Source of the DNA: a virus
Virus record (IMG/VR): IMGVR_UViG_3300046048_000102
Coordinates: 1 to 47,134 of that record
Length of the DNA stretch: 47,134 bases
Reading direction: 5' to 3' (one strand)
Shown: positions 1 through 22,852 of the stretch, piece after piece
How positions within the stretch are numbered: position 1 is the first letter of the stretch
Layout of the letters: each line of letters opens with the position of its first letter
Position numbers and translations under genes: made by a program
The notes under the pieces: generated by a model
What the model was told of the DNA's origin: nothing
The model's input: only the letters and a program-made list of their open reading frames with translations
Database searches by the model: none

Positions 1-361
1 CAGCTTCGACGTGGTAGCCACTCCCACGAGTTACGAGCCCGACAGTCGCTACTGCGTCTGAGGCGCCCAGCGTGAGAACTTCATATACCCCGTTAGCCCC
101 ACCTGACTGAGTAATCGTCAGGAGATCGCCAACAACGTAGTTGGTTCCACCAGCAGCAATGGTCACGGTGCCGATAGGCCCGTAGGTCCTCACGCCACCC
201 TGGGCGAAGCCCTTGGTGTACGTTCCGGTTCCGTCAGTGATAGTGAAGTCTTTGATTGATCCATCAGGGAAGACGGAGACCACTGTAACCACAGCGTCAG
301 CTGGGCTCGAGGTTCCCGTGTAGCCCTGGCAGATAAGAGTGAACTTGTCACCAACAACGTA
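1..361. repeat. Terminal overlap, left copy
   Basis: Positions 1-361 match 46774-47134 with 11 substitutions and no indels. Positions 1-127 are identical; all differences fall in 128-361. The segment lies inside one reading frame. Its length is not a multiple of three, so simple end-to-end joining breaks the frame while overlapping the copies keeps it open. This points to an overlap at the ends of a circular map rather than a true tandem repeat. Confidence 0.85.
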
Positions 362-2627: not shown

Positions 2628-3350
2628 TTAACTCTTTACTAAAGTTAAACAGAGAGTAACTTCAGTTATAGTCGTGCAGGAGTCTACATTAACTCGGATA
2701 ATATCTCCTGTAGAAAGATCGTGAGCTAAATCAATCTCATAAGATTTAACTCCGCTAGAAATAGAGAAAGTATCCAGTAAATCTGCGACAGTAGGAGGAA
2801 AGTTATCGTATGAATCTACCCATAGAGACACAGCGATACTCCCTGTTTGATCGGCCAGAAGTCTTGCTTCTGTCAGGGTGCAATCGAAAGGAATCTCAAT
2901 ATCACCAACAGGTTCAGCGGAAATCTCATCATTACCGCCAGTAATCAGAAAGCTAATAGCAACAGTTCTGTTCGCTACATCAATAGAGGCCGTTAATGTT
3001 TCAAGATCAGTAGTAGCATCGGCCCCTTCTTCAAGAAGATAGATGGCTTGCAGAGCGGCCATGTTCTGGTCATCTTCGTTTAATAGAGTCGCATTAGTAA
3101 AGGTAACCAGAGGGTCAAACCCAGTAGAGCGCCAGATGAGAACTCCATCTGTACTAGTATCTGGGTTCGTTAAAGTAATGGTTGAAGAATTAAGCCAAGA
3201 CCAGCTCGTACGCTCTTGAGTGTCGTACTCGTCAGTTGTTGGGTTGTAGAACGAGACGTTGACGTGGGTGACATCAAGATACGGAAACGTTACAGTAAGA
3301 TTCTGCTCCGAACCCGTGCCTGTGTAGTAGACTTTCGATCTATACGACAT
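2628..3350 (-). CDS. Tail fibre, T7 gp17 N-terminal-type adaptor
   Basis: 240 aa. The N-terminal part (YTGTGSEQNLTVTFPYLD, DVTHVNVSFYN, WLNSSTITLTNP, LIWRSTGFDPLVTF) has the layout of the T7 tail-fibre N-terminal domain that docks to the tail tube. The C-terminal part is a short beta-rich domain. T7 gp17 is about 550 aa, so this is a short adaptor; the receptor-binding part is probably the separate protein encoded at 1491-2621. It overlaps the lysozyme gene by 11 bases. Confidence 0.7.
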   Translation of the reverse strand: MSYRSKVYYTGTGSEQNLTVTFPYLDVTHVNVSFYNPTTDEYDTQERTSWSWLNSSTITLTNPDTSTDGVLIWRSTGFDPLVTFTNATLLNEDDQNMAALQAIYLLEEGADATTDLETLTASIDVANRTVAISFLITGGNDEISAEPVGDIEIPFDCTLTEARLLADQTGSIAVSLWVDSYDNFPPTVADLLDTFSISSGVKSYEIDLAHDLSTGDIIRVNVDSCTTITEVTLCLTLVKS

Positions 3351-3774
3351 CGAGACGTCTCCCTGTCTCTAGTTCATGGACGATTCGTCTAGCCCTTTTG
3401 CCCACCTGCTTGTACCACAGGGAATGCTTAGCTTCACGCGCAGCCCCCACCCAGTCACCAAAACGGATGCACCGTAACATGTTCTTGAACGAGGACAGGC
3501 CCCGAGCACCCAGATTGTACACCATGTTGACCAGTGCTGCCTGCCGTACGTCGTTAATCTCTTGGGTGCACTCTCCGAAGAGACCCCAATAACCTTCGAT
3601 AGCCACGTCCAGGTGTTTGTTGAGTTCAACTTCCGCCTCTTCCTTTGTTATCCTGGCGTCGGGGCCGGGAGCTTTACTCCCGTACCCCCACGTCCACTGT
3701 TTAACATCCCAGAAGGAGACTGGCGAGAAGCCTTCGTCTTTCTTCAGTTGTTCGATAATCATTTCTCTATTCAC
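3340..3774 (-). CDS. Endolysin, phage-type lysozyme (GH24-like)
   Basis: 144 aa. The start is taken as GTG at 3774 because AAGGAGG lies just upstream; a longer open frame exists but runs back into the preceding gene. The N-terminus has the muramidase pattern: catalytic Glu in LKKDEGF, then DVKQWTWGYGS (the T/GYG motif), followed by the helical domain with AALVNMVYNLGARGL and FKNMLR. It should cleave peptidoglycan between MurNAc and GlcNAc. It follows the gp16-like gene by about ten bases. T7 instead uses an early amidase (gp3.5), which I do not find here. Confidence 0.85.
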   Translation of the reverse strand: MNREMIIEQLKKDEGFSPVSFWDVKQWTWGYGSKAPGPDARITKEEAEVELNKHLDVAIEGYWGLFGECTQEINDVRQAALVNMVYNLGARGLSSFKNMLRCIRFGDWVGAAREAKHSLWYKQVGKRARRIVHELETGRRLDVV

Positions 3775-3784
3775 AGACTCCTCC

Positions 3785-6700
3785 TTATTGGCCTTTCTTA
3801 CGTTTAATAATTTTGTCCCACTCAGGTCCGAAGGACGGTGGGGTGGGAGGAGTGCTACTTCCTTTCCCACGGGCTGTGATGTTTTCAACAAGCTCTCCCC
3901 AGCCCCCTTTGGTTGGAACCACTTCGCTAGGAACGTTCTCACGTCTCCTACCGACTTCTTCCACAATCGTATCATTATACTCCTCATTGAGTTGTCCTAA
4001 CGCAGCACGTCGAAAGGATGATACTGTGTTGGTTAGAATCTGGCCTTTAGTTCCCATGCCGATACTTCCCGGCGTGGATGCTGCGTCCAGATACTCAGGA
4101 TCAGGGAGCACCTCATTATTCAGGTATTCCCGCAACCCCATCTCACGGATGATCTGATGCCAGCGTTCTTGTTGCTCCTTTGTCAGATCCACTCCCAGAT
4201 AGGTGTCGTCCTCACCTGACCTCAAGGGAATCTGAAGTTTCAGAGCTTCCTTGATGTAAGGTTGAGGAGTTAAATCGGAATAGTAGAACATCCCCATTGC
4301 AGGTGGATTGTTCTTGACAGGATATCCGTCAAGAGTGTATCTGGGCCTTACTGGATCTGCTAGCCAATCCAATCCAGGTACACCCCTGTATGCCTCGAGC
4401 CCTTGCGGGTTCGTGGCGGCTTTCCAAGCATCCATCGTGTCTTCAACCTCTCGCATGACAGGATCACGCGAACTGTTGACGGCACGCCAGAGCCCAGCCA
4501 TAGGAATCGTAGCTCCTGTTACTGTTCTCTGGAAGAGACGCTCGGCGCCCTTCGTACCTCTATCTCCCCATACAGCATCCATGACGGACTTCAGTTGTCC
4601 AAGGAAAATCTGATCCCCGAACATGCTGGAGAAAGCTACCATCATGTGTGCCGCAGCCTGCGAAACCGACCACCGCGCACCCCCAGTGCCAAACCCAGCG
4701 CTTTTCATCACGCTTTCTATCTCGGGGTTCTGTATAGGGTCCATGTCGAATAAGTTGATTCCTTGTTCCCCCGCTCCTACCGTATTATGAAGCAGATAGC
4801 CGAATCGCGCTCCTATAGTGAGAAAGTTCCCAAATGGGGAGTACCTACTCACAGGAACCGACAGGCCGTTCACTATGAAGGAGTCGGGTTTCAAGTTGGC
4901 TGCCAGCTCTACATCTCGCATGTCTCTCCCGACATTCGGGTAGAAGTGGCCACCAGCGTACAGCATCCCACCGACAATATAGAGCATAGTACCAAAGGTT
5001 AACTTCGCCAACGCAGCGTCTCGACGCCGGGGGTCAGTTGACCTCATATCTTGACGCATCTCCTGGCTCAATAAATGTAAGCCTGGGGTGCGTTGTCCGA
5101 TCACAGAGATGATGTTGAACGGAGTTTTGAAAGTCGGGAACATGAAGATAAGCGCTGGGATTTGTCCAACGGTTCTCTGCATCTGCGACATCAGGTCTTT
5201 AAGTGGATCTCCAGGTTCGATGTCGTTAGCGAAGATCGCCTCAGCTGCTTCTTTCGCTGCTTCCCTATGGAACTCTCCAGTACCCACGTACTTCTCCATC
5301 TCTTCCATCTCCCCCTTGGTTGGGGGCTTCGCATTCTGCTCCAACAGCAGGGTATGCGCTCTAACAAACCCACGAACGAATGTGTCGTAGTCCATCTCCG
5401 TTAGATGCTGGCGGTGTGCCTCTCTCACGGAAATCTCATGGATTTTGCCCATGTGGTTGATGTACCGGAACATAACGTCTTCGACCCCAAGGGCCGAAAG
5501 CGATGCTCGAGAAGTCATTCCGATCCAGTTGGTCACCTTGGCCAGGTAGTTGTCCATGGTGCTGGAGTTAGGATCAAGTTCTCCGAACATAGAGTCGTGT
5601 GTGAAAGCCTTGGTGTCCCCACCGTACTTGTTGGAATAGGGGACCAAGTTTACTAAGTTAAGTGTGTCTTCGAATACACGAGTAGCTTTGGTCCGGTCCT
5701 GTGATGTCGCAAACTCAGCATCGTAGGCCTCTTTGGCTTTCGTGAACATCGTGGTGATGTAGTGGAGAGCCTTGGAGTGGGACTGGATTTTCGCAATGGT
5801 ACTGGCATTGACTTCAGCCAATGTCTTCCGTTCCTTCTTCCCACGGATAAACCCAAGACCAACTTCCGTGTATCCTTCGACGGCCCGAGCTGCGACCATC
5901 CCCCAGTTCATCGTCATATTAACGCCATGGGTGGCGGGATTGGAGAACATCCAACCACGGAATAGCTCACCCCAGGCTGCGATGAATGGGCTCTTCTTAC
6001 CAAACGTTGCAGCGACTTTCGAGAGATCTTCCAGCGTTCTGGCACGGAGAAGATCTTCGGGGAGCGCTTGCATCTTTAGAGAGTTGAGTCCTCTACCGAG
6101 TTCAGTACCCATCTCCTTTACATAGTACGCCATCTGGGTAACCACCTCGGCGCTTTCAACGAACAACTTCTTGGATGCGCTGTCAGCTCCTTCAGCAAGA
6201 GCTTTGGCTCGCAACGCAAATAAACGCCCAGCTGCAAACTCTAATGTCATCCTGCTGGCGGTAACTTTCACTGCGCTGTCTCTTAAGCCGAGCCAGGTGT
6301 CCTTAAAGAACGCCAGATGCGTTCCGCCTTTGATGTTCTTGGCACGGGCCGTAGTTTCAGCCCAGGTCTGGGAACGGCGGTTCGACATCATTTCAGGTAC
6401 AGCCGTGGTTATGTCTTTCAGATACTCCACGAACTCCTGAGTGGACATACTCTCTGCTTCTGGGTGGAGGGCAGACAGTGTTTCGGCATTGATCGGCGCC
6501 TCTCCGGTTTCGAACTTGTAGAGACGCTCAATGACCCTTCGACGCTGGTCTGGAGAGAACAGGCGCTTGTCGGGCTCATTGAGGAAGCCAGAGTTCTCGT
6601 ACCCCTTAAGCAACCCATCAAGTTCTTTCTGAGTAAGCCAACGATCAATCGGGCGATACTCCCCGGTCTTCGGGTCATACTCCTCGACTCTAAACGAAGG

Positions 6701-8941
6701 CTTCCGTGTTTCTGGATCGATCTCTGTTTCCAACACCCTAACGTCTGCCGGGGTGTAGCGACGGAGATCTGACTTCTTAATCCTGACATCCTCTGCACGA
6801 TACCAGTGGTTCGGCTTGGTGATCTTCCCGGTGAACGGATCGTAGAAGGCGAGCCGATAGAGCTGTTCTCGATTCAGAGGGTTAGTGTTGATCTCAACGA
6901 TGGTTCCCCAGTTCAGTTTGGCGTCCAGGTCTCTCGCCTGTACTCTTGTACGGAGAGGGAGCTTAGCTGCCCTTGGCGGAACCCACGGGTCATCCATCTG
7001 TTCTTCGGGAGTTGTCTCCGCTTCCTTCATGAACTTCTCGAAGTCGTTCTTCAGCTGCGTGTCGTCCCAGTTCGAGTGTTGAGCTCGGTTTGCCTCTGGG
7101 TTCGGAGACTTAATGAGGTCAGGGCGTTCTCTCCACTTGTTCGGGAGCTTGCCCCGCTCACCACGCAAACCTCTAGTTCTTTCTTCTTCTACTGATATCT
7201 GGAGTTTCTTATCCGCCGTCTCAAAGTCTTTCCCGAGACCGTAGGAGAAGTTGGCTCCATCATAATATTTCCCCTCGATCTTGATGGGGAGTTTTGAGAA
7301 AGCTTTCTGCAGCTTTGGCATGACTTCCCGAGCCTGGGCCTCATTATCAAACATGAGAACCATCTCGTCACCACCTAAGCGGTAATGCTCAACGCCAGCC
7401 GTTTGGAACAGCTTAGCATAAGATTTGACTAGCTCGTCTCCGCCTTCATGGCCGATGCTGTCGTTCAGGGCTTTTAACCCCTCCATGTCAGCGACAACGG
7501 TTATAGGCTTGGCTTCGCCTGAGTTGAGGACACGCTTGAGGGCGTAGCGGTTTGGGGACCCTGTGAGTGGGTCAATCTCTACGGCTCTCAGTGCCTCGGC
7601 TGCGGTAAGCTCTTCTCCAGTTGTTAATTTCTCCTGGATCAAGCTGTCCACTGCCTCTCGCAGCTGGGCATCTTTCCGACGATCGCCTTCACCCTTACGC
7701 TCTACTCTGCGGTCTGGGCCAGAAGGCGTGGCCGCTTCCATGCGCCCCTGAACCTCTCGTATCAGCTGGTCTACTTCGACCCGCTCTGGCGTGAGGTCCA
7801 CGTCAGGACTATCTGTGGCTGTGCCAGTTGTAATAGTCGCAGCTTCATTACTAAGATGTGCTTCATCAATGAACGTAGATTCTAGTTCCCTAGCTGCTGC
7901 TCTTACATTATCAGGTACCTCAGGGTTCTTAATAATAGCGGTGACTAGATCTGGATTATACCGCCCTTCCCTAAGTAATACGCCGATCTGAGCTAGTTCG
8001 TATAGGTTAGCAGCGTTCTCCCCGGCCTTCAGGGCTTCTGTCTTCATGGCGGCATGCGCTGTAAAGATGGCGCTGATGCCGATCCCCTCGACTCCTGCGA
8101 GGAGCCATTCTTTCCGAGGAATCCAGTTGGTAGGGCGCCCTTCCTGTCCAGCACGGAGGATCTCTTTCCCCTGCTCCCATCCAAGTGAACCCACGTTGAA
8201 TGCGGTCCACCCGAGGGCGTTCTTACCAGCCCGAGTCCATATCAAGCTTCCTGCCTCATCGACAGGTTCTGGTATTGCTTGCATGACCGCACCCGCGATC
8301 ATAGCGTGAGTTACATCAGATGCGAACCTCCAAGGGTCTTGGCTCCCAGCTGATTTCATGGCGTTACGGGCAATCATCCCAGCAACGAATGGCTTGGTCT
8401 TCGACAGGTACTTAAGCACCTTGCTGGCCTCGTAGGCCTTGCTGCCGAAGCGGGCCAAGTCAACCGTCTTTAGAATAGCCCCTCCCAGCGCTATATCAGC
8501 CGGGAGGGTTACAGCCATACCGCCCATAGTTTTAATGAGACGCTCCGCAACTTCTCCAGCGAAGCTCTCGGCTTTGCTTTCATCTTCTACACGATCCACC
8601 ACTGTCTTCCAGGGGTGGAGCACATGAGTCTGGTACCAGTCTGGGGCTCCATCTAGATGATACAGAGAGGATTGTAGAAGGTCATCCCCTATATCAGAGC
8701 CGGGGTTGATCGGATCAGCAGCGAGAGTATAGTCCTCCGGTACTGAAGCGATCTCATGCGCAGCTTGAGCCATACCAATTGCCAGCCACGCTGCGGTCTT
8801 TTCCAAGGCCCCAGGTTTCCATCCATTAGGGTACTCAGCGCGCGCTGACCGAGTAAGGGGCCTCTGCGCCGGGACGACTAAACCAGTGTCCTCCTCGGGA
8901 GCAGTGGGTAGTTCTGTAAACTTCAAGAAATCCTCAGCCAT
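3785..8941 (-). CDS. gp16-like internal virion (ejection) protein with embedded GGDEF domain
   Basis: 1718 aa, against about 1318 in T7 gp16. Position (last of the internal protein genes, after the gp15-like gene) and size identify the large core/ejection protein that forms the trans-envelope channel. I see no N-terminal lytic transglycosylase motif. Residues about 455-595 form a GGDEF domain: DPLTGSPNRYAL, ITVVADMEGLKALND, GHEGGDELVKSYAKLF, HYRLGGDEMVLMF at about 523, and FSYGLG. The metal-binding Asp, the ND/GH substrate residues and GGDE are all present; the final Phe is Met, and no RxxD inhibitory site precedes the loop. A hydrophobic segment lies near residues 1310-1335. The rest is helical and charged. 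Confidence 0.9.
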   Translation of the reverse strand: MAEDFLKFTELPTAPEEDTGLVVPAQRPLTRSARAEYPNGWKPGALEKTAAWLAIGMAQAAHEIASVPEDYTLAADPINPGSDIGDDLLQSSLYHLDGAPDWYQTHVLHPWKTVVDRVEDESKAESFAGEVAERLIKTMGGMAVTLPADIALGGAILKTVDLARFGSKAYEASKVLKYLSKTKPFVAGMIARNAMKSAGSQDPWRFASDVTHAMIAGAVMQAIPEPVDEAGSLIWTRAGKNALGWTAFNVGSLGWEQGKEILRAGQEGRPTNWIPRKEWLLAGVEGIGISAIFTAHAAMKTEALKAGENAANLYELAQIGVLLREGRYNPDLVTAIIKNPEVPDNVRAAARELESTFIDEAHLSNEAATITTGTATDSPDVDLTPERVEVDQLIREVQGRMEAATPSGPDRRVERKGEGDRRKDAQLREAVDSLIQEKLTTGEELTAAEALRAVEIDPLTGSPNRYALKRVLNSGEAKPITVVADMEGLKALNDSIGHEGGDELVKSYAKLFQTAGVEHYRLGGDEMVLMFDNEAQAREVMPKLQKAFSKLPIKIEGKYYDGANFSYGLGKDFETADKKLQISVEEERTRGLRGERGKLPNKWRERPDLIKSPNPEANRAQHSNWDDTQLKNDFEKFMKEAETTPEEQMDDPWVPPRAAKLPLRTRVQARDLDAKLNWGTIVEINTNPLNREQLYRLAFYDPFTGKITKPNHWYRAEDVRIKKSDLRRYTPADVRVLETEIDPETRKPSFRVEEYDPKTGEYRPIDRWLTQKELDGLLKGYENSGFLNEPDKRLFSPDQRRRVIERLYKFETGEAPINAETLSALHPEAESMSTQEFVEYLKDITTAVPEMMSNRRSQTWAETTARAKNIKGGTHLAFFKDTWLGLRDSAVKVTASRMTLEFAAGRLFALRAKALAEGADSASKKLFVESAEVVTQMAYYVKEMGTELGRGLNSLKMQALPEDLLRARTLEDLSKVAATFGKKSPFIAAWGELFRGWMFSNPATHGVNMTMNWGMVAARAVEGYTEVGLGFIRGKKERKTLAEVNASTIAKIQSHSKALHYITTMFTKAKEAYDAEFATSQDRTKATRVFEDTLNLVNLVPYSNKYGGDTKAFTHDSMFGELDPNSSTMDNYLAKVTNWIGMTSRASLSALGVEDVMFRYINHMGKIHEISVREAHRQHLTEMDYDTFVRGFVRAHTLLLEQNAKPPTKGEMEEMEKYVGTGEFHREAAKEAAEAIFANDIEPGDPLKDLMSQMQRTVGQIPALIFMFPTFKTPFNIISVIGQRTPGLHLLSQEMRQDMRSTDPRRRDAALAKLTFGTMLYIVGGMLYAGGHFYPNVGRDMRDVELAANLKPDSFIVNGLSVPVSRYSPFGNFLTIGARFGYLLHNTVGAGEQGINLFDMDPIQNPEIESVMKSAGFGTGGARWSVSQAAAHMMVAFSSMFGDQIFLGQLKSVMDAVWGDRGTKGAERLFQRTVTGATIPMAGLWRAVNSSRDPVMREVEDTMDAWKAATNPQGLEAYRGVPGLDWLADPVRPRYTLDGYPVKNNPPAMGMFYYSDLTPQPYIKEALKLQIPLRSGEDDTYLGVDLTKEQQERWHQIIREMGLREYLNNEVLPDPEYLDAASTPGSIGMGTKGQILTNTVSSFRRAALGQLNEEYNDTIVEEVGRRRENVPSEVVPTKGGWGELVENITARGKGSSTPPTPPSFGPEWDKIIKRKKGQ

Positions 8942-8950
8942 CTGCGCTCC

Positions 8951-10897
8951 TTATCTATTTTGATTAGCTGTGTTCCACTTGTGTAAAGTAGACTGCGTAG
9001 GAATGTTGAGAGACCTGTCCATGGCCTCGATCTCAGTTGGAGTGCGTCCTGGCTTGCTCTCCCATACCATATACTGATCGGGAGTAGCGTTAGGCGGAAG
9101 CCAATCATCCTGCGCCATGAGCTCGGTCTTTACCTTCTGGACTTCGGCATCGCTCAGTTTGATGTATGGAGGAATCTCCTCCCTCACTTCTTTCATGATG
9201 GCTTTCATCTCGTCGCCATTGATGCGACGACCCAGCTCTTCTTCCTTCGCCATACCCAAAGTCCAGAACAAGTCTTCGGCTTCACGCTGCCTTCTAGCAC
9301 CACCTGGGTCCATAGGTCCTGGCGTGAAGCGTTTCTTTGGGTTGTACAGCGTGGGGAAGGACCGCATGAACAACTGCGCCTGTATGTTCTCAGTAAAGAC
9401 CTTGCGATCGATACCACTGCGTCTGTTGCGTCTAGCGTCCTGTTCCTGCGCTGCTATGGACAGATACTTATTCCATGTAGCAATATCCAACTTGTCGCTT
9501 CGGGAAGCAACCCAGTCAACTGTGATGCGACCCATTGAGACTTCTCTATAGAACTCTACCTTGTAAGCATCGCTGGTAACGCTGGGGTGGAACCCCTGTT
9601 CCTTGAGAGCGTAGAGTACCGAGTATGCCGTAGCGACATCCTCTCGGCTGAGAGCTCCAGGAGACCGCCTGTTGGCTTGCTCAATCTGGAGTCTTATGCC
9701 TTCCTCTGCGTCGAGCATCAGTCGAGCAGCTTCTTCAGGGCTCCGCTTGTAGTTGGTAGTGAGTTCGTTAATCATGTTCGTAGTAAAGGAGGAGAATCCA
9801 TCCCTCACTTCTTGCTTGCGTTCCTGTTTAATATACCGCAGCTGCTCCCGCCGTGCGTTCATGGCGTTGGAGAAAGTGCGTGTGATAAGGCTTGTCTTAG
9901 GCCCCTCGACCCCGTTTAGGTCGACGATGGCCATCTCTCCTGGTCTACCGCTGGTGACAAAGGCACCTGACAGCAGCTCGGGGATCTGGAGATCTGAGGC
10001 CATGCTGGTGATGACGGTGGACCAGTCATCTGTGGCTTCAGGTTTAGTTAGGTTCCCCCCGTTCTTCAGAACGAAATCTCGATGCAAGTCTCGAGTCATC
10101 TGTGCAATCCGAGGCTCGAGTCCAGCGCTATTCTTGACGAATGCTTCAAGACCTTCGGTAGTAGCGAGATCCCCTACAGTAAGGCGTCTGACTACACCAT
10201 CTGCGTCGGTGTACACAATATCCTTGAGAAGTTCCTGGAGTCCTGTAGTCGTCTCGTTGCGGAGGTTAGATCTAGCGGACTCACGATAGGCAGCATGGGC
10301 TTTCTGTACCCCATCGACTACGAACTCGTGCATGAGTTTCTCTTCTACAGTCGAAGCTCTGGGTAGGAAAGCATCAGTCTCCACCTCGGAAACCATACTG
10401 CCTAGGTATTTCTGTCGGAGGGCGCCGAGCTCTGCTTCCAGTGCTTCTTGCGTTGCCCCCTGTGACTTCAGCCGTTCAGTGACTTGATAAGCCTCATTGA
10501 AATAATCATAGCTCTTTCTCTCACCGCTGACTGCATCGAACCCCGACTTATAGGCGCTGGTGAAGATCTTCCCGAGCAACCCTTTAGGGGTTTCTCGACT
10601 GGGAGGTCGGGCCTGAGCGACCTGATCGGCCATCCCTTCTTCAACAGCGATCCCATCAGTTCCTGGGTCCCACTCTCGTACTCCCTGGGCCTGAGCCTCT
10701 TCGGCTCCTATGGCTCCAATCTTGCTCCCACTCGATACTATTCCGTGGAGAGCGTTGAATATATTGTTGGTGTTATCGCTCTTGAAAGGTGTGATAAATG
10801 GGTCAGTTGGACGTGCGGTGACCTGCACACTCGGAGCAACAACTTTAGTGTCCAGAAGATCTGGACGTGCTCGTACTTTCCTCCCTGTCTCTGCCAC
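8951..10897 (-). CDS. gp15-like internal virion protein
   Basis: 648 aa, mostly charged and alpha-helical, without cysteine-rich or catalytic motifs. It sits between the gp14-like and gp16-like genes, as gp15 (747 aa) does in T7, and starts directly at the stop of the gp14-like gene. gp15 builds the periplasmic tunnel of the ejectosome together with gp14 and gp16. Identification rests on gene order, size and helical character more than on a recognisable motif. Confidence 0.75.
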   Translation of the reverse strand: MAETGRKVRARPDLLDTKVVAPSVQVTARPTDPFITPFKSDNTNNIFNALHGIVSSGSKIGAIGAEEAQAQGVREWDPGTDGIAVEEGMADQVAQARPPSRETPKGLLGKIFTSAYKSGFDAVSGERKSYDYFNEAYQVTERLKSQGATQEALEAELGALRQKYLGSMVSEVETDAFLPRASTVEEKLMHEFVVDGVQKAHAAYRESARSNLRNETTTGLQELLKDIVYTDADGVVRRLTVGDLATTEGLEAFVKNSAGLEPRIAQMTRDLHRDFVLKNGGNLTKPEATDDWSTVITSMASDLQIPELLSGAFVTSGRPGEMAIVDLNGVEGPKTSLITRTFSNAMNARREQLRYIKQERKQEVRDGFSSFTTNMINELTTNYKRSPEEAARLMLDAEEGIRLQIEQANRRSPGALSREDVATAYSVLYALKEQGFHPSVTSDAYKVEFYREVSMGRITVDWVASRSDKLDIATWNKYLSIAAQEQDARRNRRSGIDRKVFTENIQAQLFMRSFPTLYNPKKRFTPGPMDPGGARRQREAEDLFWTLGMAKEEELGRRINGDEMKAIMKEVREEIPPYIKLSDAEVQKVKTELMAQDDWLPPNATPDQYMVWESKPGRTPTEIEAMDRSLNIPTQSTLHKWNTANQNR

Positions 10898-11440
10898 TTA
10901 TCTGCTCCCTTTCTTGGGCCTGGTAATTGCTTGCCCGAACTGTACCCCACTAGCTCCACCTTCAAGGCCTGAGCCTGCGATCTGTAGGCCAGCTGTTAAG
11001 CTACTCACCCGCATAGATGCGGCCTCGTTGTATCGGCTCTGAGCAACAGTACTTACCTTTGCGGCGTCTAGGGAGTTCTGTGCTAAAGCTCCCGCAGTGT
11101 TGGCTTGCAAAGTACCTAAGGCTTCTCTTTCTTTTAGTCTCATGTTATACATTTCTCTTAACGGTGATTTACCCACAAACCCAGTCTCAGCTTGAGCTGC
11201 GGACAACCGACCTCGTTCAAGTAGCGCTTGACGTTTTAGTGATAGGGCTTCCTGAGTGGCCTTCTGGTTGATTTGCTTTCCTCTCTCCTCTAAAGCCAGG
11301 TAATCCCCCTGAGCTGCTTTAGCGGCGTTCTCCTGCATCTTCCTGCTGGTCGTATTCGCCTGCTGGATGTTGGTATATGCCGAGCCCGCAGCAAGAGCTG
11401 CGGAGGTAACACCAAGAGTGATGCTAACAGGATCACACAT
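10898..11440 (-). CDS. gp14-like internal virion protein
   Basis: 180 aa starting MCDPVSITLGVTSAALAAGS, a hydrophobic N-terminus typical of gp14-like ejection proteins, followed by a long Ala/Gln/Glu-rich helix (QQANTTSRKMQENAAKAAQ) and a glycine-rich end. The start at 11440 is chosen because AAGGAG lies about ten bases upstream; a longer frame to 11503 lacks a binding site and overlaps the previous gene. In T7, gp14 forms the outer-membrane pore during DNA entry. It overlaps the upstream gene by eight bases. Confidence 0.8.
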   Translation of the reverse strand: MCDPVSITLGVTSAALAAGSAYTNIQQANTTSRKMQENAAKAAQGDYLALEERGKQINQKATQEALSLKRQALLERGRLSAAQAETGFVGKSPLREMYNMRLKEREALGTLQANTAGALAQNSLDAAKVSTVAQSRYNEAASMRVSSLTAGLQIAGSGLEGGASGVQFGQAITRPKKGSR

Positions 11441-11924
11441 GCTGCGGTACTCCTTTCCCTCCCATCGTGAACCTAACGAACGGAAACGTGGGATCGTTAT
11501 CAAAGATTATTTTCTCAGGAACCATCGTGAAACCGAGCCACCGCAACCAGCGAATGGAGGTTTCATTAGCCTCGCTGACGATGTTGGTCAGCAGATCGCA
11601 CTTGGTGCGCATGAACTCCACGATGTCCTTAGATGTTCGCAAGAATAAACCTGAAGCCACCCTGAATGGAGCTTCGTTCGAGAGCAGCCAAGGGACGCCG
11701 ACTGTAAGTTCAGGACCTTTGTGCAGCGCCAAGCCAAAGACCCCACATACTCTGCCCCGCCAGGTAATGACCCAAGCGTAGCTGGAGGATGCTATGGAGT
11801 CAGCCAGGAGCTCATCAGTTGGTAAACCGTGAGCTACCTGGCCCTCCTTGAGTTCTATAGGTCGGAGCTCCAGAGCCATCACGGCCTCGAAATCTTCCTT
11901 GCGTAATTCCCTGTACTCCAACAT
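11433..11924 (-). CDS. gp13-like, GNAT-fold virion assembly protein
   Basis: 163 aa with an acetyltransferase-like layout: N-terminal YRELRKEDFEAVMALE, central strand pair VITWRGRVCGVFGLA, and the C-terminal IRWLRWLGFTMV typical of the GNAT last helix/strand. Podophages of this type carry such a protein between tail tube B and gp14, where T7 has gp13. Whether it acetylates anything is unknown; the acetyl-CoA loop (Q/RxxGxG/A) is not clear. It is probably needed for internal core assembly. Confidence 0.7.
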   Translation of the reverse strand: MLEYRELRKEDFEAVMALELRPIELKEGQVAHGLPTDELLADSIASSSYAWVITWRGRVCGVFGLALHKGPELTVGVPWLLSNEAPFRVASGLFLRTSKDIVEFMRTKCDLLTNIVSEANETSIRWLRWLGFTMVPEKIIFDNDPTFPFVRFTMGGKGVPQHV

Positions 11925-11925
11925 A

Positions 11926-12177
11926 CTATATTCTCCTTAAGAGTGGTTCTGTGGTCAGTTGCCTGCCATCTTCGTCGAACTGGAAGAAGGCTTCTGGTTG
12001 GCTCTCATCTTCTCTAAGCCAAGGTGGTATAATGATCGTGCCATCTTTGTGATGTGGGAACTTATGTAGCATTGCGAAGTAATCAAATACCTCTTTCGGG
12101 TGATTGTGTTCGCATGAAAGTGCAGCTGGGGCTGCCAGTAACAGCAACCCCAGCACCAGAATACCTATGTTTTTCAT
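11926..12177 (-). CDS. Small secreted or lipoprotein-like protein
   Basis: 83 aa with a textbook signal peptide: MKN, a hydrophobic core IGILVLGLLLLAAPAALS, then a cysteine (CEHNHPKE). The Cys lies where a lipobox cysteine would be, but ALSC is a poor lipobox, so either lipid anchoring or signal peptidase I cleavage is possible. The mature part is acidic and His-rich, with HNHPKE and HKFPHHKDG. It overlaps the tail tube B gene by four bases. Signal peptides are unusual within a tail/core gene cluster; superinfection exclusion or a lysis helper are guesses. Confidence 0.65.
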   Translation of the reverse strand: MKNIGILVLGLLLLAAPAALSCEHNHPKEVFDYFAMLHKFPHHKDGTIIIPPWLREDESQPEAFFQFDEDGRQLTTEPLLRRI

Positions 12178-15100
12178 ATAGATCTACTCCTGACTGCGTA
12201 CATCCCCTCCCAGCTTGCTTCGTACCACGTTGCTGGAAAGTGAGAGGAGTTCACAAGAGATATGGTCGTCCCAATAGCATTCCCCATGATGAGGAAGCGC
12301 TTCTTGGAAGAGGGCATAGGAACACTGCCCAGTGTAGTCAGACCAATCTCTACGCCAGTGTACTCGTGAGTGATGGCCTCTCGTCCCCCCTCAACTGTAC
12401 CCGTAGGAGTGACCACACAATCAAACATTACTGTTTCTTGGTAGGCGACAATAAGCGTTCGGAGTTGCAGTCTCCCCTGTGGATTAAAGATCTTAGCTTG
12501 ATCCGAGGCGGGCAAACCGAACTCACTAAATGTGTATGTCTGAGTGTACGTAGATCCAATGAGCATCTTGGCCGCGCTGTAGTTGCCAAGCACGGTAAGG
12601 GTAGTTTCATCTACCCAGGTAAGCCCATCAACTTCTTTCCCTGTTCCCAGGTTGACAAGCACCCAGCCTTCATCAAAGTCTTCCTCCGATAAAGAGAAGG
12701 GAAGGGTGAAGGTAGTGAGCCCTGTTACAGCGCTATATGTCCCGGTAGAATCAAACTCAGTCCGAGAGTCTAAGTGGCACAGGAACTCCAATCCATCATC
12801 CGATACCCGCTCTAAGTTCATAGTGTAGAGCACGTACTCTAACCCAGTGGCTCCCACAATATACACGATATTGTCGAAGATCTCCACAGCCTTAACGGTA
12901 AACGGAAAGGACCACGTAAACCACGCAGACTGTGCCTTCTTGTCTCCGTAGATCTCATAACGGTAGCCATAGACATAGTTGTCCAGACCAGTGCAGGTGA
13001 GAAGGAGGTTGAAGGTGGAAGAGCTAGCTAAATACTTCACGTCATACGGGACGTATCGAGGAGCATGCGCAGTAACATCAGCAGCATCCTCGCGTAACGT
13101 CTGGGGTTGCGTGAAGTATTCGTAAAGCGCTGCCCACTCTCCCTTCGGAGAGACGAAGTAAATATTTGCCCCGGCCAGCACTGGCCTGCAGTGTGGGCTT
13201 ACGGGATAGTTGGTGGCCGAGTCCATTGATGCGGTCTTGGCCCCAAACACTTGATCTCCTGAAGTGAGGAGGTGTTGATTCGTAGCTCCGTACACAAGCA
13301 GATCGCCTTTATCCGCGATCGCCCAGCGTAGAGCGTCCAGCCCCATCGAAGGGATAGTGATGTCCATAGGATCATCGTCCGTGACTTCCAGGGCTGTATT
13401 GGGATAGAAGTTAAAGTAGTCATCCACTCTGGACAACATGACGTTGTTCGCAGCAAGGAAGCCTACTCGGTTCTTGTGAAAGAATATATCCGTGATTGGG
13501 TAGCCTACGAACGAGGGGTCAGGCGAAGAGTCTTCATCCCCTACAGCCCTTGGAACCCAGTTAATCGGAGCGAAATTAAACGTTCCGTTAGCTTGGCGCA
13601 CCAAGGAGTGAGGGCAGCTCAATCCATTGAGATGGTTGTCTAAGAAAGGCTTGACTGTTTCCCTCCAGACCCCCGATATACCCTTGCCGTCCTTCGTTTC
13701 GTCTACCCACTTCAAGTAGTAACCCGTTCCTAGGGCGTCAGTCACTCTCGGGCCGACATAGATCACTATGTCTTCCTGAGGAGATTTAGTCCCGTCAGAG
13801 GCGTATCCTAGGGTGTTTAAAATCCTAGTTGGTCCTGTGCCACTTGAAGTAACAGTGAAGGTGCGGATTGAACTATTGATGCGGAATGAAGCACTCCCCG
13901 GTATATACTGGACAACATATCCATCCATATCACCGTGAGAGTCCAAGGCTGTCTGCAGCTTTGTAGCTAGGCTTTTGGCTGCAGTTGCCCTATAAAGGGT
14001 AAGCCAGGACCCACCCCATCCAGCATATTCACCTGAGTCAACGGACACTTCATTAGCAAGGGAGTCAGTGACGGTGATCGTACAGGATACTCCGTCCTCA
14101 TGATCGTCTTCGCGTTGGAGGAGAACGGTGGTTGCTACAGCGCCGTAATCACCTGCTCCTACGCTAGATGGTATAGGCATGGTATTTGGAAGATCTTCCA
14201 GCCTCCTGGCTTCTTCCTTAATCCCTACCATTGCCGAGTCCCCCCAGCTGTCGTTCACGCTGAAAGTGAAATCATCTCCTGCTGAGTTCCATACTAAGAT
14301 TGCGGAGCCCCGGTAGGAGATTTGCCAATCTGAGCCAAGCCCAGCATCGATTGCTGTAGCCAGCTGCTCAGCAATATACGTGGTCCGATAGGTGGAGTAC
14401 TGCGTGCTGTCTCCTGTAGTATAGGAGTAGGTCACGCCGTTGATCTCTACGTTGTAGGTTTGACCAGCCACCCCATGAGTGATGTTAATTAATGCAAATG
14501 GAAACTCCCATCCAAGGTCAGGGAACCCGCTCTTCTCAGGGGTTACCTCGATATTGCTGACAACTGTGGTGTCTGCAATCGTTAAAGCCTTGATGGACTC
14601 TTCCGGTGTATCTGTGGTGGCGTACTTTTTGTAGTCTCCCGGCTCCACGCACTGGTAACAGAAAGCTGCGTGTAGCTCGTTCTGAGACGTATTTCCATTG
14701 TAGGTAATTCTAATTGTGACTGTCGATACGCCAGCTGGTGCCTGAAATATTCCAAGCTCGGTATCGTCAGCTACATCGTCCACTCCGCTGTCCCCTACTT
14801 CTACAAACCAACTCTCCGCTGCTCCGCCGTCGGTATCGATGACCGCAGGAGCTCCGGTGTCAAGTTCGATTGCAACTCGGTAATAGTTGGGATAAACTAC
14901 TGGAATAGATTGCTCGATGTAGTCTCCATCATCAAACTGAAAGATGCTCGCTGATACTTGCGTCACTCCGCTGGCGGTCCACTCTGTGACATCATCCAAT
15001 CCAGGATCACTGAAAAGGTTCTCCCCGATGTTGGTGGGGTTGTATGTTACACTTTTAGCGGCTCCATCCAGCAAGGAGTAGACTTCGATAGGAGTAGTAT

Positions 15101-15356
15101 CGTCTCCTGTGAAAAAGACTACATACTTCTCAGAATCATCTCGATCTACGAAGTGCATCCTAACTGGATCAGTCAGCCCACCTACCTTAGCACGCAAGGC
15201 GTCTAGGAAGGCTGCAGGGGGGCGTTTGTACACCCCGTCTGCCAGAGTGGGGAAACAGTTCAGCATCTCCTCACACTGGTTATCCAACCGGAGTGCAGGG
15301 GGCTGTTGAGACACGCCCCCATACATTCCAGTAATGGTCTTAGAAAGAAGAGGCAT
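12174..15356 (-). CDS. Tail tubular protein B (gp12-like)
   Basis: 1060 aa, against 794 in T7 gp12. The N-terminus SKTITGMYGGVSQQPPALR and the neighbouring LDNQCEEMLNCFPTLADG with KRPPAAF are diagnostic for this family of podophage nozzle proteins. Further conserved parts include FFHKNRVGFLAANNVMLSR, DYFNFYP and GEWAALYEYF. The protein forms the tail nozzle below tail tube A. Extra length in the first half (Thr/Asp-rich beta domains, roughly residues 100-550) suggests inserted decoration domains. Confidence 0.95.
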   Translation of the reverse strand: MPLLSKTITGMYGGVSQQPPALRLDNQCEEMLNCFPTLADGVYKRPPAAFLDALRAKVGGLTDPVRMHFVDRDDSEKYVVFFTGDDTTPIEVYSLLDGAAKSVTYNPTNIGENLFSDPGLDDVTEWTASGVTQVSASIFQFDDGDYIEQSIPVVYPNYYRVAIELDTGAPAVIDTDGGAAESWFVEVGDSGVDDVADDTELGIFQAPAGVSTVTIRITYNGNTSQNELHAAFCYQCVEPGDYKKYATTDTPEESIKALTIADTTVVSNIEVTPEKSGFPDLGWEFPFALINITHGVAGQTYNVEINGVTYSYTTGDSTQYSTYRTTYIAEQLATAIDAGLGSDWQISYRGSAILVWNSAGDDFTFSVNDSWGDSAMVGIKEEARRLEDLPNTMPIPSSVGAGDYGAVATTVLLQREDDHEDGVSCTITVTDSLANEVSVDSGEYAGWGGSWLTLYRATAAKSLATKLQTALDSHGDMDGYVVQYIPGSASFRINSSIRTFTVTSSGTGPTRILNTLGYASDGTKSPQEDIVIYVGPRVTDALGTGYYLKWVDETKDGKGISGVWRETVKPFLDNHLNGLSCPHSLVRQANGTFNFAPINWVPRAVGDEDSSPDPSFVGYPITDIFFHKNRVGFLAANNVMLSRVDDYFNFYPNTALEVTDDDPMDITIPSMGLDALRWAIADKGDLLVYGATNQHLLTSGDQVFGAKTASMDSATNYPVSPHCRPVLAGANIYFVSPKGEWAALYEYFTQPQTLREDAADVTAHAPRYVPYDVKYLASSSTFNLLLTCTGLDNYVYGYRYEIYGDKKAQSAWFTWSFPFTVKAVEIFDNIVYIVGATGLEYVLYTMNLERVSDDGLEFLCHLDSRTEFDSTGTYSAVTGLTTFTLPFSLSEEDFDEGWVLVNLGTGKEVDGLTWVDETTLTVLGNYSAAKMLIGSTYTQTYTFSEFGLPASDQAKIFNPQGRLQLRTLIVAYQETVMFDCVVTPTGTVEGGREAITHEYTGVEIGLTTLGSVPMPSSKKRFLIMGNAIGTTISLVNSSHFPATWYEASWEGMYAVRSRSI

Positions 15357-15992: not shown

Positions 15993-18197
15993 TTATGTTA
16001 CTGTTAGTTCGTCAGGGCATTCAAAGTTGTAGCCAGTCTTCTGCTGCCAGACGTAGTACGTACCGGGGTCAAGTAAGAATACTACCTCCCCGTTGGTATC
16101 GGTTTGCAGAGTACCCGCTACAACAGTGGTCCCTGCTTCATCACTGGTGACCCATACATCAACACCTTCTAACCCCACGCCACCCACGGTGACGGTGATG
16201 GTGTTGGACACTGAGCCAAGCCCAGCCACAGACGAGGACAGGCCAGCCAAGGCTTGCGCCAGAGTCAGACCAGTACTTCCTGCGCTAGAATGGGCAGCAA
16301 TTGCTTCATCCCATACAGCGTCAGCAATTGCAGCGGCGCTAGCAGGAGCAGCAACCGAATCAAGGATCAGATCCAGTCGACCACCGTCCTCCCAGTCCGT
16401 CTGCAACTCGTTAGTATCAGCCACGATGGAGTCCACGATGCCGTCGATGACGTCAATCTTGGCGTCCAAAGCTGTCAGAGCTGCAGGGGTATCGTCACTC
16501 TGAAGTTCATTAGTGTCTGCCAGGATGGCATCCACATTGGAATCGATTGTTACAAGGGAAGCGGGAATACTCGTTCCTGTATCTACCAGTATCGCCGTAA
16601 TCTGAGTGATAGCATCGCTCAGTTTCTTCCCCGCACTCCCAGCGCCATACGCACCAGGGAGCGGAGTAACCCAAGGGTCACCCGCAGATGCAGCACCAGC
16701 AAGGGCTTCGCCTGTACTGCCTGCAGCAGCATGCCCAGCGATGGCTTCATCCCATACGGCATCTGCTACGTCAGCTGCTGTTGGAGCAGAAGCAGCGTCT
16801 AAGATTAAATCAAGTCTTCCACCATCAGCCCACTCGTCCTGCAACTCATCGGTGTCTGCAAGGATGTCCGTAATGTCGGACTGTAGGTCAGCGATGGCGG
16901 CATCGAGAGTGGTTCCGGTGTCAACAAGAATAGAGTCAACATTTCCGTCTACAACAGCCAGAAGGTCTGGCAATGTAGTCCCGGTATCGAGCAGTATTGC
17001 ATCGATGAGGGCATCAAGCCTTCCGCCGTCGGTCAGGTCACCCTGGAGTTCGTCGGTGTCCGTGATGATCGCATCGAGCTTGGCGTCCTGAGCAATACCC
17101 AGGTCACCAAAGGAGCCAGCGCTAACATGGTCAGCCTGGGCTTCATCCCATACTGCGTCTGCGATATCAGCTGCAGTAGGAGCAGCACCAGCACTAGCCA
17201 GAGTATCAATAGCTTCCCCAAAGCTTCCAGCCCCTACATGCGAGGAAACCAGATCATCCCAGACGGCGTCAGAGATCTCAGTCATCGGATGGATGTGCGC
17301 CGGGAGAATATCGAACTCATCGTTATTCGCCGGGGCAGCGGTAAGCTCGTCAGATAGAGTAATCTGTCCACTGGCGTTGAGGTACTCGAGAATCGGTTTG
17401 CATTGACCAGCCAGCGATCCGGTGGTGAAGTAGATCAACTGCTCGTTCCAGTAGCCATCTGCTTCTGTAAGATCGGTGTTAAAGACCGTAGTGGTTGCAG
17501 CAGCACCAGGATCATCCACAGCGCTGGATACAGCATTGCCACCCAAGGAGCGGAGCCTACGGCCCGCTGAGGTGGCAACATTATGGGTGGCTCCGGTGAG
17601 CACTTCATCCCATACAGCGTCTGCAATTGCTCCAACCGTGAGAGCATCCACAACAGTTTGCACATTGGCAATGTCAGTAGCGATGTCAGTGTCAGCTGGG
17701 GCTCCGACGGTGGTGATGAGACCATCCACCACGGTGTCCAGGTTAGCGATATCGGTAGCAATATCAGTGTCTGCTGGTGTTCCAACAGTTGTGATGAGAC
17801 CATCCACCACGGTGTCCAGGTTAGCGATATCGGTAGCAATATCAGTGTCTGCTGGTGTTCCGACTGTAACTATCAGTGCATCCAGATTTGAATCGACAGT
17901 AGCTATATCAGCAGCTAATGTGTCGGTCCATGCAGAACCAGGAACTCCGATTACTTGAACATCTCCTGTAGCCGACACAGGGTCAATCATGATGTGATCC
18001 CCGTTGGTCTCGGCTCCTGTAATATCAAACATATAGTATCCATGAGCAAGTTCAGTTGGGTTCGTATCGTCGACTGCATTCACCGACCCGTCGATATATA
18101 CATCAGCGGTGATGTTTGCAGCATCCCCAGTGACTGGCGTGTTGTCTGTCAGGTCGAAGGCAAACACTAGCCACTTTGTTGCGGTATTCTTTTTCAA
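15993..18197 (-). CDS. Repetitive fibrous virion protein with AVWDE repeats
   Basis: 734 aa of low complexity, rich in Ala, Asp, Thr and Leu, with no cysteine until the last residues. The N-terminal domain (about 1-95; KWLVFAFDLTDNTPVTGD, LAHGYYMFDITGAETNGDH) looks like a fibre base domain. The middle consists of IADAVWDE units and LDTVVDGLITTVGTPADTD units, probably trimeric helical or beta-helical shaft. The C-terminal domain (about 660-734; VGGVGLEGVDVWVTSDEAG, DTNGEVVFLLDPGTYYVW) resembles an Ig/prealbumin-like fold that may bind surfaces. It lies between the capsid and tail tube A genes, suggesting a head or collar fibre. Confidence 0.7.
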   Translation of the reverse strand: MKKNTATKWLVFAFDLTDNTPVTGDAANITADVYIDGSVNAVDDTNPTELAHGYYMFDITGAETNGDHIMIDPVSATGDVQVIGVPGSAWTDTLAADIATVDSNLDALIVTVGTPADTDIATDIANLDTVVDGLITTVGTPADTDIATDIANLDTVVDGLITTVGAPADTDIATDIANVQTVVDALTVGAIADAVWDEVLTGATHNVATSAGRRLRSLGGNAVSSAVDDPGAAATTTVFNTDLTEADGYWNEQLIYFTTGSLAGQCKPILEYLNASGQITLSDELTAAPANNDEFDILPAHIHPMTEISDAVWDDLVSSHVGAGSFGEAIDTLASAGAAPTAADIADAVWDEAQADHVSAGSFGDLGIAQDAKLDAIITDTDELQGDLTDGGRLDALIDAILLDTGTTLPDLLAVVDGNVDSILVDTGTTLDAAIADLQSDITDILADTDELQDEWADGGRLDLILDAASAPTAADVADAVWDEAIAGHAAAGSTGEALAGAASAGDPWVTPLPGAYGAGSAGKKLSDAITQITAILVDTGTSIPASLVTIDSNVDAILADTNELQSDDTPAALTALDAKIDVIDGIVDSIVADTNELQTDWEDGGRLDLILDSVAAPASAAAIADAVWDEAIAAHSSAGSTGLTLAQALAGLSSSVAGLGSVSNTITVTVGGVGLEGVDVWVTSDEAGTTVVAGTLQTDTNGEVVFLLDPGTYYVWQQKTGYNFECPDELTVT
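17713..17861. repeat. 78-bp tandem repeat inside the fibrous protein gene
   Basis: A 71-base block at 17713-17783 recurs without change at 17791-17861. The period is 78 bases, equal to 26 residues, so the reading frame is kept. A further diverged unit lies beyond at about 17635-17712. Near-identity at DNA level points to recent duplication or ongoing homogenisation. Confidence 0.85.
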
Positions 18198-22829: not shown

Positions 22830-22852
22830 TCTCCGTTCAGTGGGTGGAATTA
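22830..22852 (-). promoter_or_regulatory. Candidate phage RNA polymerase promoter, structural operon
   Basis: Minus-strand TAATTCCACCCACTGAACG, continuing GAGA, matches the 23-base T7 consensus promoter at 17 of 23 positions, including TAAT, CACT and the GGAGA start region. The same 19-base core occurs once more, at 33757-33775, with one difference. It overlaps the ribonucleotide reductase stop codon and lies just before the first morphogenesis gene, as class III promoters do. Confidence 0.65.

What the first reader, a model, noticed from the sequence alone, without database searches (positions are those of the whole stretch)
7170..7580. Intact-looking GGDEF domain inside a phage ejection protein
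The 1718-aa gp16-like protein carries, at about residues 455-595, the successive GGDEF signatures DPLTGSPNRYAL, VADMEGLKALND, GHEGGDEL and RLGGDEM, with the metal and substrate residues present. GGDEF enzymes make cyclic di-GMP or related cyclic dinucleotides. gp16-type proteins enter the host envelope and cell with the DNA, so the phage may deliver a signalling enzyme at the first moment of infection. It could alter motility/biofilm state or disturb nucleotide-based defence signalling. T7 gp16 has a transglycosylase here, not a GGDEF. The last residue of the loop is Met rather than Phe, so activity or product may differ.
Basis: partly seen in the sequence, partly recalled or inferred. Interest (0 to 1): 0.88.

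Follow-up and report, generated by a model that had tools for sequence, protein, structure and literature searches.

The report
Signalling-enzyme domain inside phage ejection protein
A T7-like phage carries, inside the large protein that such phages are thought to push into a bacterium with their DNA, a domain of the family that makes the signal molecule cyclic di-GMP; close relatives carry a different host-modifying enzyme in the same place, so the site looks like a swappable cargo slot, although this copy has lost one conserved active-site residue and may not be a normal enzyme.

Summary
The 1718-aa ORF (3785-8941, minus) has a GGDEF domain at residues about 445-600: Pfam 42 bits (cutoff 23.8), confident model (mean pLDDT 87), best matches solved diguanylate cyclases (Z up to 17.2). 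The protein sits at the T7 gp16 position, and its C-terminal core resembles internal virion protein D.

New here: only three other gp16s of this lineage were found. All share the flanking regions and none has GGDEF. Two carry ART-PolyVal, the ADP-ribosyltransferase of phage 'polyvalent' proteins, in the same slot; the third has no recognised domain there. The domain groups with a phage-type GGDEF family found mostly in giant polyvalent proteins, already predicted (Iyer 2017) to be injected.

'Intact' is only partly right. Metal, guanine and GGDE residues are kept, but the phosphate-binding lysine (PleD K442), Lys or Arg in all 105 aligned relatives, is Val584; the loop Phe is Met and the product-inhibition site is absent. 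Delivery: likely. Canonical cyclase activity: about 0.4. Packaging, ejection and catalysis are all untested.

A new variant of a known kind.

The parts
3785..8941 (-). gp16-like ejection (internal virion) protein, 1718 aa, carrying the GGDEF domain
   Evidence: C-terminal matches to internal virion protein D and phrog_6651; gene order as in Autographiviridae
7142..7609 (-). GGDEF domain, residues about 445-600
   Evidence: Pfam PF00990; phage-type GGDEF homologues over residues 444-600; model and fold search
7361..7375 (-). Active-site loop G523-G-D-E-M527 (consensus GGDEF)
7487..7489 (-). D485, metal Asp (PleD D327)
   Evidence: Invariant in 61/61 phage-type and 45/45 bacterial domains
7190..7192 (-). 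V584 in place of the phosphate-binding Lys (PleD K442)
   Evidence: Lys 60/60 phage-type, Lys 44 / Arg 1 of 45 bacterial; structural alignment ends at model 194 (window residue 588) and PleD 446
6992..7849 (-). Variable cargo slot, residues about 365-650: GGDEF here, ART-PolyVal in sisters L130 and L136, no recognised domain in L117
   Evidence: Alignments and Pfam
7850..8539 (-). N-terminal region shared with sister gp16s (residues about 135-364), with hydrophobic segments at 135-157, 206-224, 280-298
3878..6739 (-). gp16 C-terminal core shared with sister gp16s (residues 735-1688); part of it matches other autographiviral gp16s
   Evidence: About 29% identity to L117 over residues 634-1688; phmmer
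8951..10897 (-). Internal virion protein C position (gp15-like), 648 aa
   Evidence: By gene order only; no Pfam, PHROG or NCBIfam match
10898..11503 (-). Internal virion protein (gp14-like)
   Evidence: phrog_805 internal virion protein, E 2.7e-8
12174..15356 (-). Tail tubular protein B
   Evidence: phrog_457, E 4e-166
3340..3987 (-). Separate lysozyme gene overlapping the 3' end of the gp16 gene; this gp16 has no transglycosylase hit
   Evidence: PF00959, 42.3 bits

Best explanation
The protein is the T7 gp16-type ejection protein of a lytic-looking autographivirus-like podophage. It has become a carrier. Between an N-terminal region with hydrophobic segments and the conserved gp16 core there is a slot that holds an exchangeable effector domain: GGDEF in this phage, an ADP-ribosyltransferase in two sisters. 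By analogy with T7, the protein is packaged in the head core, ejected ahead of the DNA and threaded through the envelope, leaving the part behind the membrane segments in the cytoplasm. There the GGDEF domain meets host GTP at the first moment of infection. Most likely it binds GTP through the retained metal and guanine residues and disturbs host guanine-nucleotide or cyclic-dinucleotide signalling, either by slow or altered cyclic di-GMP synthesis free of product inhibition, or by nucleotide binding alone. Shown by sequence: the fold, the gp16 context, the variable slot, the ART exchange, the kept and lost residues. Inferred: packaging, ejection, cytoplasmic location, GTP binding, catalysis, host effect.
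For: GGDEF domain. gp16 identity: gene order tail tubular A, tail tubular B, internal virion proteins, gp16, tail fibre as in RHEph01, BB8, CRP-171, HTVC041P and C-terminal similarity to internal virion protein D. Cargo slot: sister gp16s L130 and L136 carry PF18760 ART-PolyVal (E 4.6e-9 and 2.2e-15, over cutoff) at the same place; L117 has neither. In a scan of 37 gp16s the only enzymatic hits were wall hydrolases (SLT 4, phage lysozyme 1), ART 2 and this GGDEF. The ART residues reported for this family (H, Y, D) appear as VYHGT, GHYFTE and FD/LD in both sisters. Phage-type GGDEF domains sit mostly in giant ORFs, some with InPase, GNAT or methyltransferase domains. Conserved D485, K490, N493, D494, D502, G524, D525, E526. 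T7 gp16-C is placed in the cytoplasm (PMC8954989).
Against: No virion proteomics or ejection data. V584 replaces the phosphate-binding lysine; E487, M527 and E587 also depart from the family, so GTP turnover may be weak or lost. The topology argument is an analogy with T7 backed only by a simple hydropathy scan. Only four gp16s of the lineage are known, and only one has GGDEF, so conservation of the domain itself cannot be tested.
Confidence: 0.68

Rival explanations
1. Active effector: the delivered domain is a working diguanylate (or related) cyclase that raises cyclic di-GMP at once, shifting the host's motility or envelope state, or flooding nucleotide-based defence.
For: Metal Asp, guanine-binding Asn and Asp, the GGDE acids and the R446 position (R588) are kept. 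Met at the loop's last position also occurs in 1 phage and 2 bacterial relatives. No RxxD inhibition site, so output would not be self-limited. D502 (PleD D344) argues for guanine specificity.
Against: The K442 equivalent is Val, against Lys/Arg in all 105 relatives with a residue there. Loss of K442 together with other residues accompanies inactive GGDEF domains in LapD and SgmT (PMC3032553, PMC3509222). No dimerisation module identified.
Confidence: 0.4
2. Degenerate GGDEF used as a GTP or nucleotide binder or sensor within the ejection machine, for example sensing arrival in the cytoplasm or binding a host GGDEF or receptor partner.
For: Base- and metal-binding residues kept while the phosphate lysine is lost; inactive GGDEF domains acting as receptors are well known.
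Against: The sisters' ART in the same slot has no matching structural or sensing role; the I-site used by many receptor GGDEFs is absent.
Confidence: 0.3
3. Decaying cargo: the slot receives effector domains by recombination and this copy is losing function, or is filler.
For: Four unusual substitutions at conserved positions (E487, M527, V584, E587); sister L117 has a shorter slot with no recognised domain.
Against: Frame and fold intact, and all other catalytic positions kept.
Confidence: 0.22
4. Delivered to the wrong place: the domain stays in the capsid or periplasm and never meets GTP.
For: T7 gp16-N (residues 1-228) is periplasmic, and the split between periplasmic and cytoplasmic parts in this longer protein is not known.
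Against: The domain lies behind three hydrophobic segments, at residues 456-597, roughly where T7 gp16-C (from residue 411) begins. ART and GGDEF both need cytoplasmic substrates.
Confidence: 0.1
5. Assembly artefact joining a bacterial GGDEF gene to a phage gene.
For: Single metagenomic contig; no second phage with this arrangement found.
Against: One open frame; homology to sisters on both sides of the domain; even GC (0.52 domain, 0.53 gene); the domain bears the phage-type G.R..RG tail (50/61 phage against 2/45 genome-derived) and groups with phage domains.
Confidence: 0.03

Closest known systems
Phage and conjugative-element polyvalent proteins (Iyer et al. 2017, PMC5512222), including their GGDEF and ART domains
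   Same: Large phage protein joining a predicted virion/ejection part to an enzyme domain; GGDEF and ART are both listed domains; predicted early delivery with the DNA.
   Different: The carrier is a T7 gp16-type ejection protein; the paper's text holds no 'gp16' or 'internal virion'. One slot with alternative single cargo domains rather than a many-domain chain.
T7 gp16 / internal virion protein D
   Same: Gene position, C-terminal core similarity, N-terminal and C-terminal hydrophobic segments.
   Different: No N-terminal transglycosylase; 1718 against 1318 aa; carries GGDEF in an inserted slot; lysozyme is a separate gene.
YuA-type phage GGDEF proteins (YuA gp44, Bordetella CN1)
   Same: Closest small phage GGDEF relatives, 34-35% identity, same C-terminal G.R..RG tail. 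YuA gp44 is annotated 'putative role in host cell conversion'.
   Different: Stand-alone proteins of about 150 aa beside an antirestriction gene, not part of a virion protein.
PleD-type diguanylate cyclases
   Same: Same fold (Z 16.4 to 2v0n); metal and guanine residues kept.
   Different: K442 position is Val, GGDEF ends in Met, no RxxD I-site, no sensory or dimerisation domain found.
T4 Alt and other head-packaged ADP-ribosyltransferases
   Same: The sisters' cargo is an ART in a protein expected to enter the cell with DNA.
   Different: Alt is a separate head protein; here the enzyme is inside the ejection protein, and in the window phage it is GGDEF instead.

Membership tests
GGDEF domain family | Profile match over the curated cutoff | tested here: met
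   PF00990 42 bits against 23.8
GGDEF domain family | GGDEF fold | tested here: met
   AF2 mean pLDDT 87; Foldseek top hits all GGDEF; VIA Z up to 17.2
GGDEF domain family | GG[D/E]EF loop | tested here: inconclusive
   GGDEM: both acids kept, Phe to Met; Met also in 1 phage and 2 bacterial relatives
Active diguanylate cyclase | Metal Asp D327 and guanine-binding N335 and D344 (PleD) | tested here: met
   D485, N493, D502
Active diguanylate cyclase | Phosphate-binding K442 (PleD) | tested here: not met
   V584; Lys in 104 and Arg in 1 of 105 relatives with a residue there
Active diguanylate cyclase | Phosphate-binding R446 (PleD) | tested here: met
   R588 aligns with PleD 446 at the end of the structural alignment
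Active diguanylate cyclase | Makes cyclic di-GMP from GTP | not testable with these tools
   Needs purified protein
T7 gp16-type ejection protein | Gene order after tail tubular A/B and the smaller internal virion proteins, before the tail fibre | tested here: met
   Window genes
T7 gp16-type ejection protein | Sequence relation of the C-terminal core | tested here: met
   Internal virion protein D of CRP-403 and HTVC041P, E 2e-5; phmmer E down to 1e-15 to viral gp16s
T7 gp16-type ejection protein | Membrane-spanning segments | tested here: inconclusive
   Hydrophobic segments in positions comparable with T7; hydropathy only
T7 gp16-type ejection protein | N-terminal lytic transglycosylase (not universal) | tested here: not met
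   No SLT or lysozyme hit in the protein
T7 gp16-type ejection protein | Packaged and ejected with DNA | not testable with these tools
   No proteomics available
Polyvalent protein (Iyer 2017) | Disparate domains in one phage polypeptide | tested here: met
   gp16 core plus GGDEF; ART in sisters
[quoted passage not shown]
   Inferred from gp16 type and late-gene context

The most novel reading that the evidence does not exclude
T7-like ejection proteins have a dedicated interchangeable cargo slot placing effector enzymes (GGDEF, ADP-ribosyltransferase, others) on the cytoplasmic side of the ejectosome before any phage gene is expressed, and this phage uses it to deliver an active, feedback-free cyclic-dinucleotide enzyme.
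Probability: 0.28. Interest if true: 0.88.

Novelty: new variant of a known kind. Interest (0 to 1): 0.64.

Why it matters
Phage effectors delivered before transcription can act ahead of host defence, but few are known, and short-tailed phages have been thought less equipped for it than myoviruses (only about 3% of podoviruses carry ARTs, PMC9503650). An ejection protein with a swappable enzyme slot would make gp16 a natural protein-delivery device, would tie cyclic-dinucleotide signalling directly to the first moments of infection, and gives two clear candidate enzymes (GGDEF, ART) to test in one scaffold.

Tried and rejected
Single-sequence searches with the domain and with the whole gp16 found nothing in viral contigs; a two-sequence gp16 alignment gave uninformative patterns. 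Human-gut 'phage' hits to the domain (MT83xxxx records): those opened (5 of them) look like bacterial diguanylate cyclases on unannotated contigs and were set aside. The strong GGDEF hit in G025 is a separate 386-aa ORF at the contig's edge, not in gp16. PADLOC: no defence-family match. Two searches for further sister gp16s returned the same three, so selection on the GGDEF domain could not be measured. The bacterial set was fetched with a phage-derived query, so the tree only says that the window domain groups with phage domains: a branch of 64 rows with SH-aLRT 96 that includes two genome-derived rows, while the checker found no starred set in at most half the rows. Papers: no hit joining GGDEF to internal virion proteins; the library lacks most subscription journals. 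The second structure job was not used. Host not determined.

Full report
1. What was checked. The finding names a GGDEF domain in a gp16-like phage protein. The ORF is 3785-8941, minus strand, 1718 aa, ATG. The window is a whole IMG/VR record of 47,134 bases. Its two ends repeat each other for 361 bases at 97%, so it is probably a nearly complete genome with redundant ends.

2. The domain is real. Pfam GGDEF matches residues 456-559 with 42 bits (cutoff 23.8). phmmer finds solved cyclases. Foldseek's top PDB hits are GGDEF proteins and VIA-align gives Z 17.2 over 135 residues at 1.6 A to 4zmm, and Z 16.4 to PleD 2v0n.

3. The carrier is a gp16-type protein. The order tail tubular A, tail tubular B, smaller internal virion proteins, 648-aa protein, this protein, tail fibre N-terminal domain is the order seen in Autographiviridae. 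The C-terminal part matches internal virion protein D of Roseobacter phage CRP-403 and Pelagibacter phage HTVC041P (about 22% identity, E 2e-5) and viral-contig gp16s. There is no transglycosylase in it; a lysozyme gene follows and overlaps its 3' end.

4. The domain sits in a variable slot. A portal search found a sister clade at about 70-76% portal identity. One nearly full-length member, IMGVR_UViG_3300037484_000186, has a 1569-aa gp16 with 29% identity over window residues 634-1688 and a related N-terminal region, but no GGDEF. A motif search (GWMFSNP) brought two more sisters. Both carry Pfam ART-PolyVal (E 4.6e-9 and 2.2e-15, over cutoff) in the same slot, with the His, Tyr and Asp that Iyer et al. 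describe for this ART family (by eye); L136 is cut off at its N-terminus, so only part of its upstream flank is seen. A last search found no others. So of four gp16s of this lineage, one has GGDEF, two have ART and one has an unrecognised sequence. In a set of 37 gp16s, which includes these four, the only other domains were wall hydrolases (SLT 4, phage lysozyme 1).

5. Where the domain comes from. A search seeded with the window domain and two YuA-type proteins gave 73 viral loci. Most of the domains lie in ORFs of roughly 1,000 to 5,300 aa; five examined include InPase, GNAT, methyltransferase and sigma-region domains beside GGDEF, as in polyvalent proteins. No window tail, portal, capsid, RNA polymerase or internal-virion protein matched within 8 kb of them apart from the GGDEF stretch itself; only the GNAT-like (4 loci) and lysozyme (1 locus) genes did. 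The window domain shares the phage-type C-terminal G.R..RG tail (50/61 phage, 2/45 genome-derived) and falls with the phage domains in a quick tree, on a long branch (1.18).

6. Is the active site intact? Kept: D485, K490, N493, D494, D502, G524, D525, E526, R588. Changed: D487 to E, F527 to M, K584 to V, R587 to E. K584 is the PleD K442 position; it is Lys in 104 and Arg in 1 of 105 relatives. K442 and R446 bind GTP phosphates (PMC7288161, PMC3509222). D327, N335 and D344 are the residues reported essential, and all three are kept. The RxxD inhibition site is absent (TAGV at that place, by eye). Activity is therefore open; I put canonical cyclase activity at about 0.4.

7. Topology. In T7, gp16 residues 1-228 are periplasmic and residues 411-1118 are placed in the cytoplasm (PMC8954989). 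The window protein has hydrophobic segments at 135-157, 206-224 and 280-298 before the slot; T7 has a cluster at 319-408. By analogy the slot opens on the cytoplasmic side, where GTP and NAD are. This is inference.

8. What is known. Iyer et al. 2017 already predicted that GGDEF domains in phage polyvalent proteins are injected and interfere with nucleotide signalling. YuA gp44 is annotated with a GGDEF domain and a 'putative role in host cell conversion'. I found no paper joining GGDEF or ART to a gp16-type ejection protein, within an incomplete library.

9. Verdict. Observation confirmed; interpretation partly supported. The stronger and newer result is the cargo slot with GGDEF/ART exchange in a T7-type ejection protein. 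The weaker point is enzymatic activity of this particular GGDEF.

Noticed in passing
L130:847-5856 and L136:9762-14066 (minus): Sister gp16-like proteins carry an ADP-ribosyltransferase (ART-PolyVal, PF18760) in the slot that holds GGDEF in the window.
   Followed up: yes
L117:10244-14950, residues about 378-500: Third sister gp16 has a slot sequence (KQRYKIDVRTKKIVPIFGVDAVDMRATNPFDII...) with no Pfam or PHROG match; possibly another cargo or a remnant.
   Followed up: partly
window 1-361 and 46774-47134: Direct repeat of the contig ends at 97% identity, suggesting a nearly complete genome whose ends differ by strain variation or by diverged gene copies.
   Followed up: partly
window 15993-18197 (minus): 734-aa repeat-rich protein (PADTDIATDIANLDTVVDGL... 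units; weak SpaA-like end) between tail tubular A and the capsid region; the sister genome has one too.
   Followed up: no
window 11433-11924 (minus): GNAT-like acetyltransferase at the T7 gp13 position; relatives of it lie near GGDEF polyvalent genes in L151, L166, L196 and L204.
   Followed up: no
window 22850-24712 (minus): Adenosylcobalamin-dependent ribonucleotide reductase, 305 bits to TIGR02505 (under that model's cutoff of 340).
   Followed up: no
L147-L219: Most of 73 phage-type GGDEF domains found in viral contigs lie in giant ORFs; many read AYHISGDEF with His in place of the usual Arg before the loop, and Lys kept at the K442 position.
   Followed up: partly
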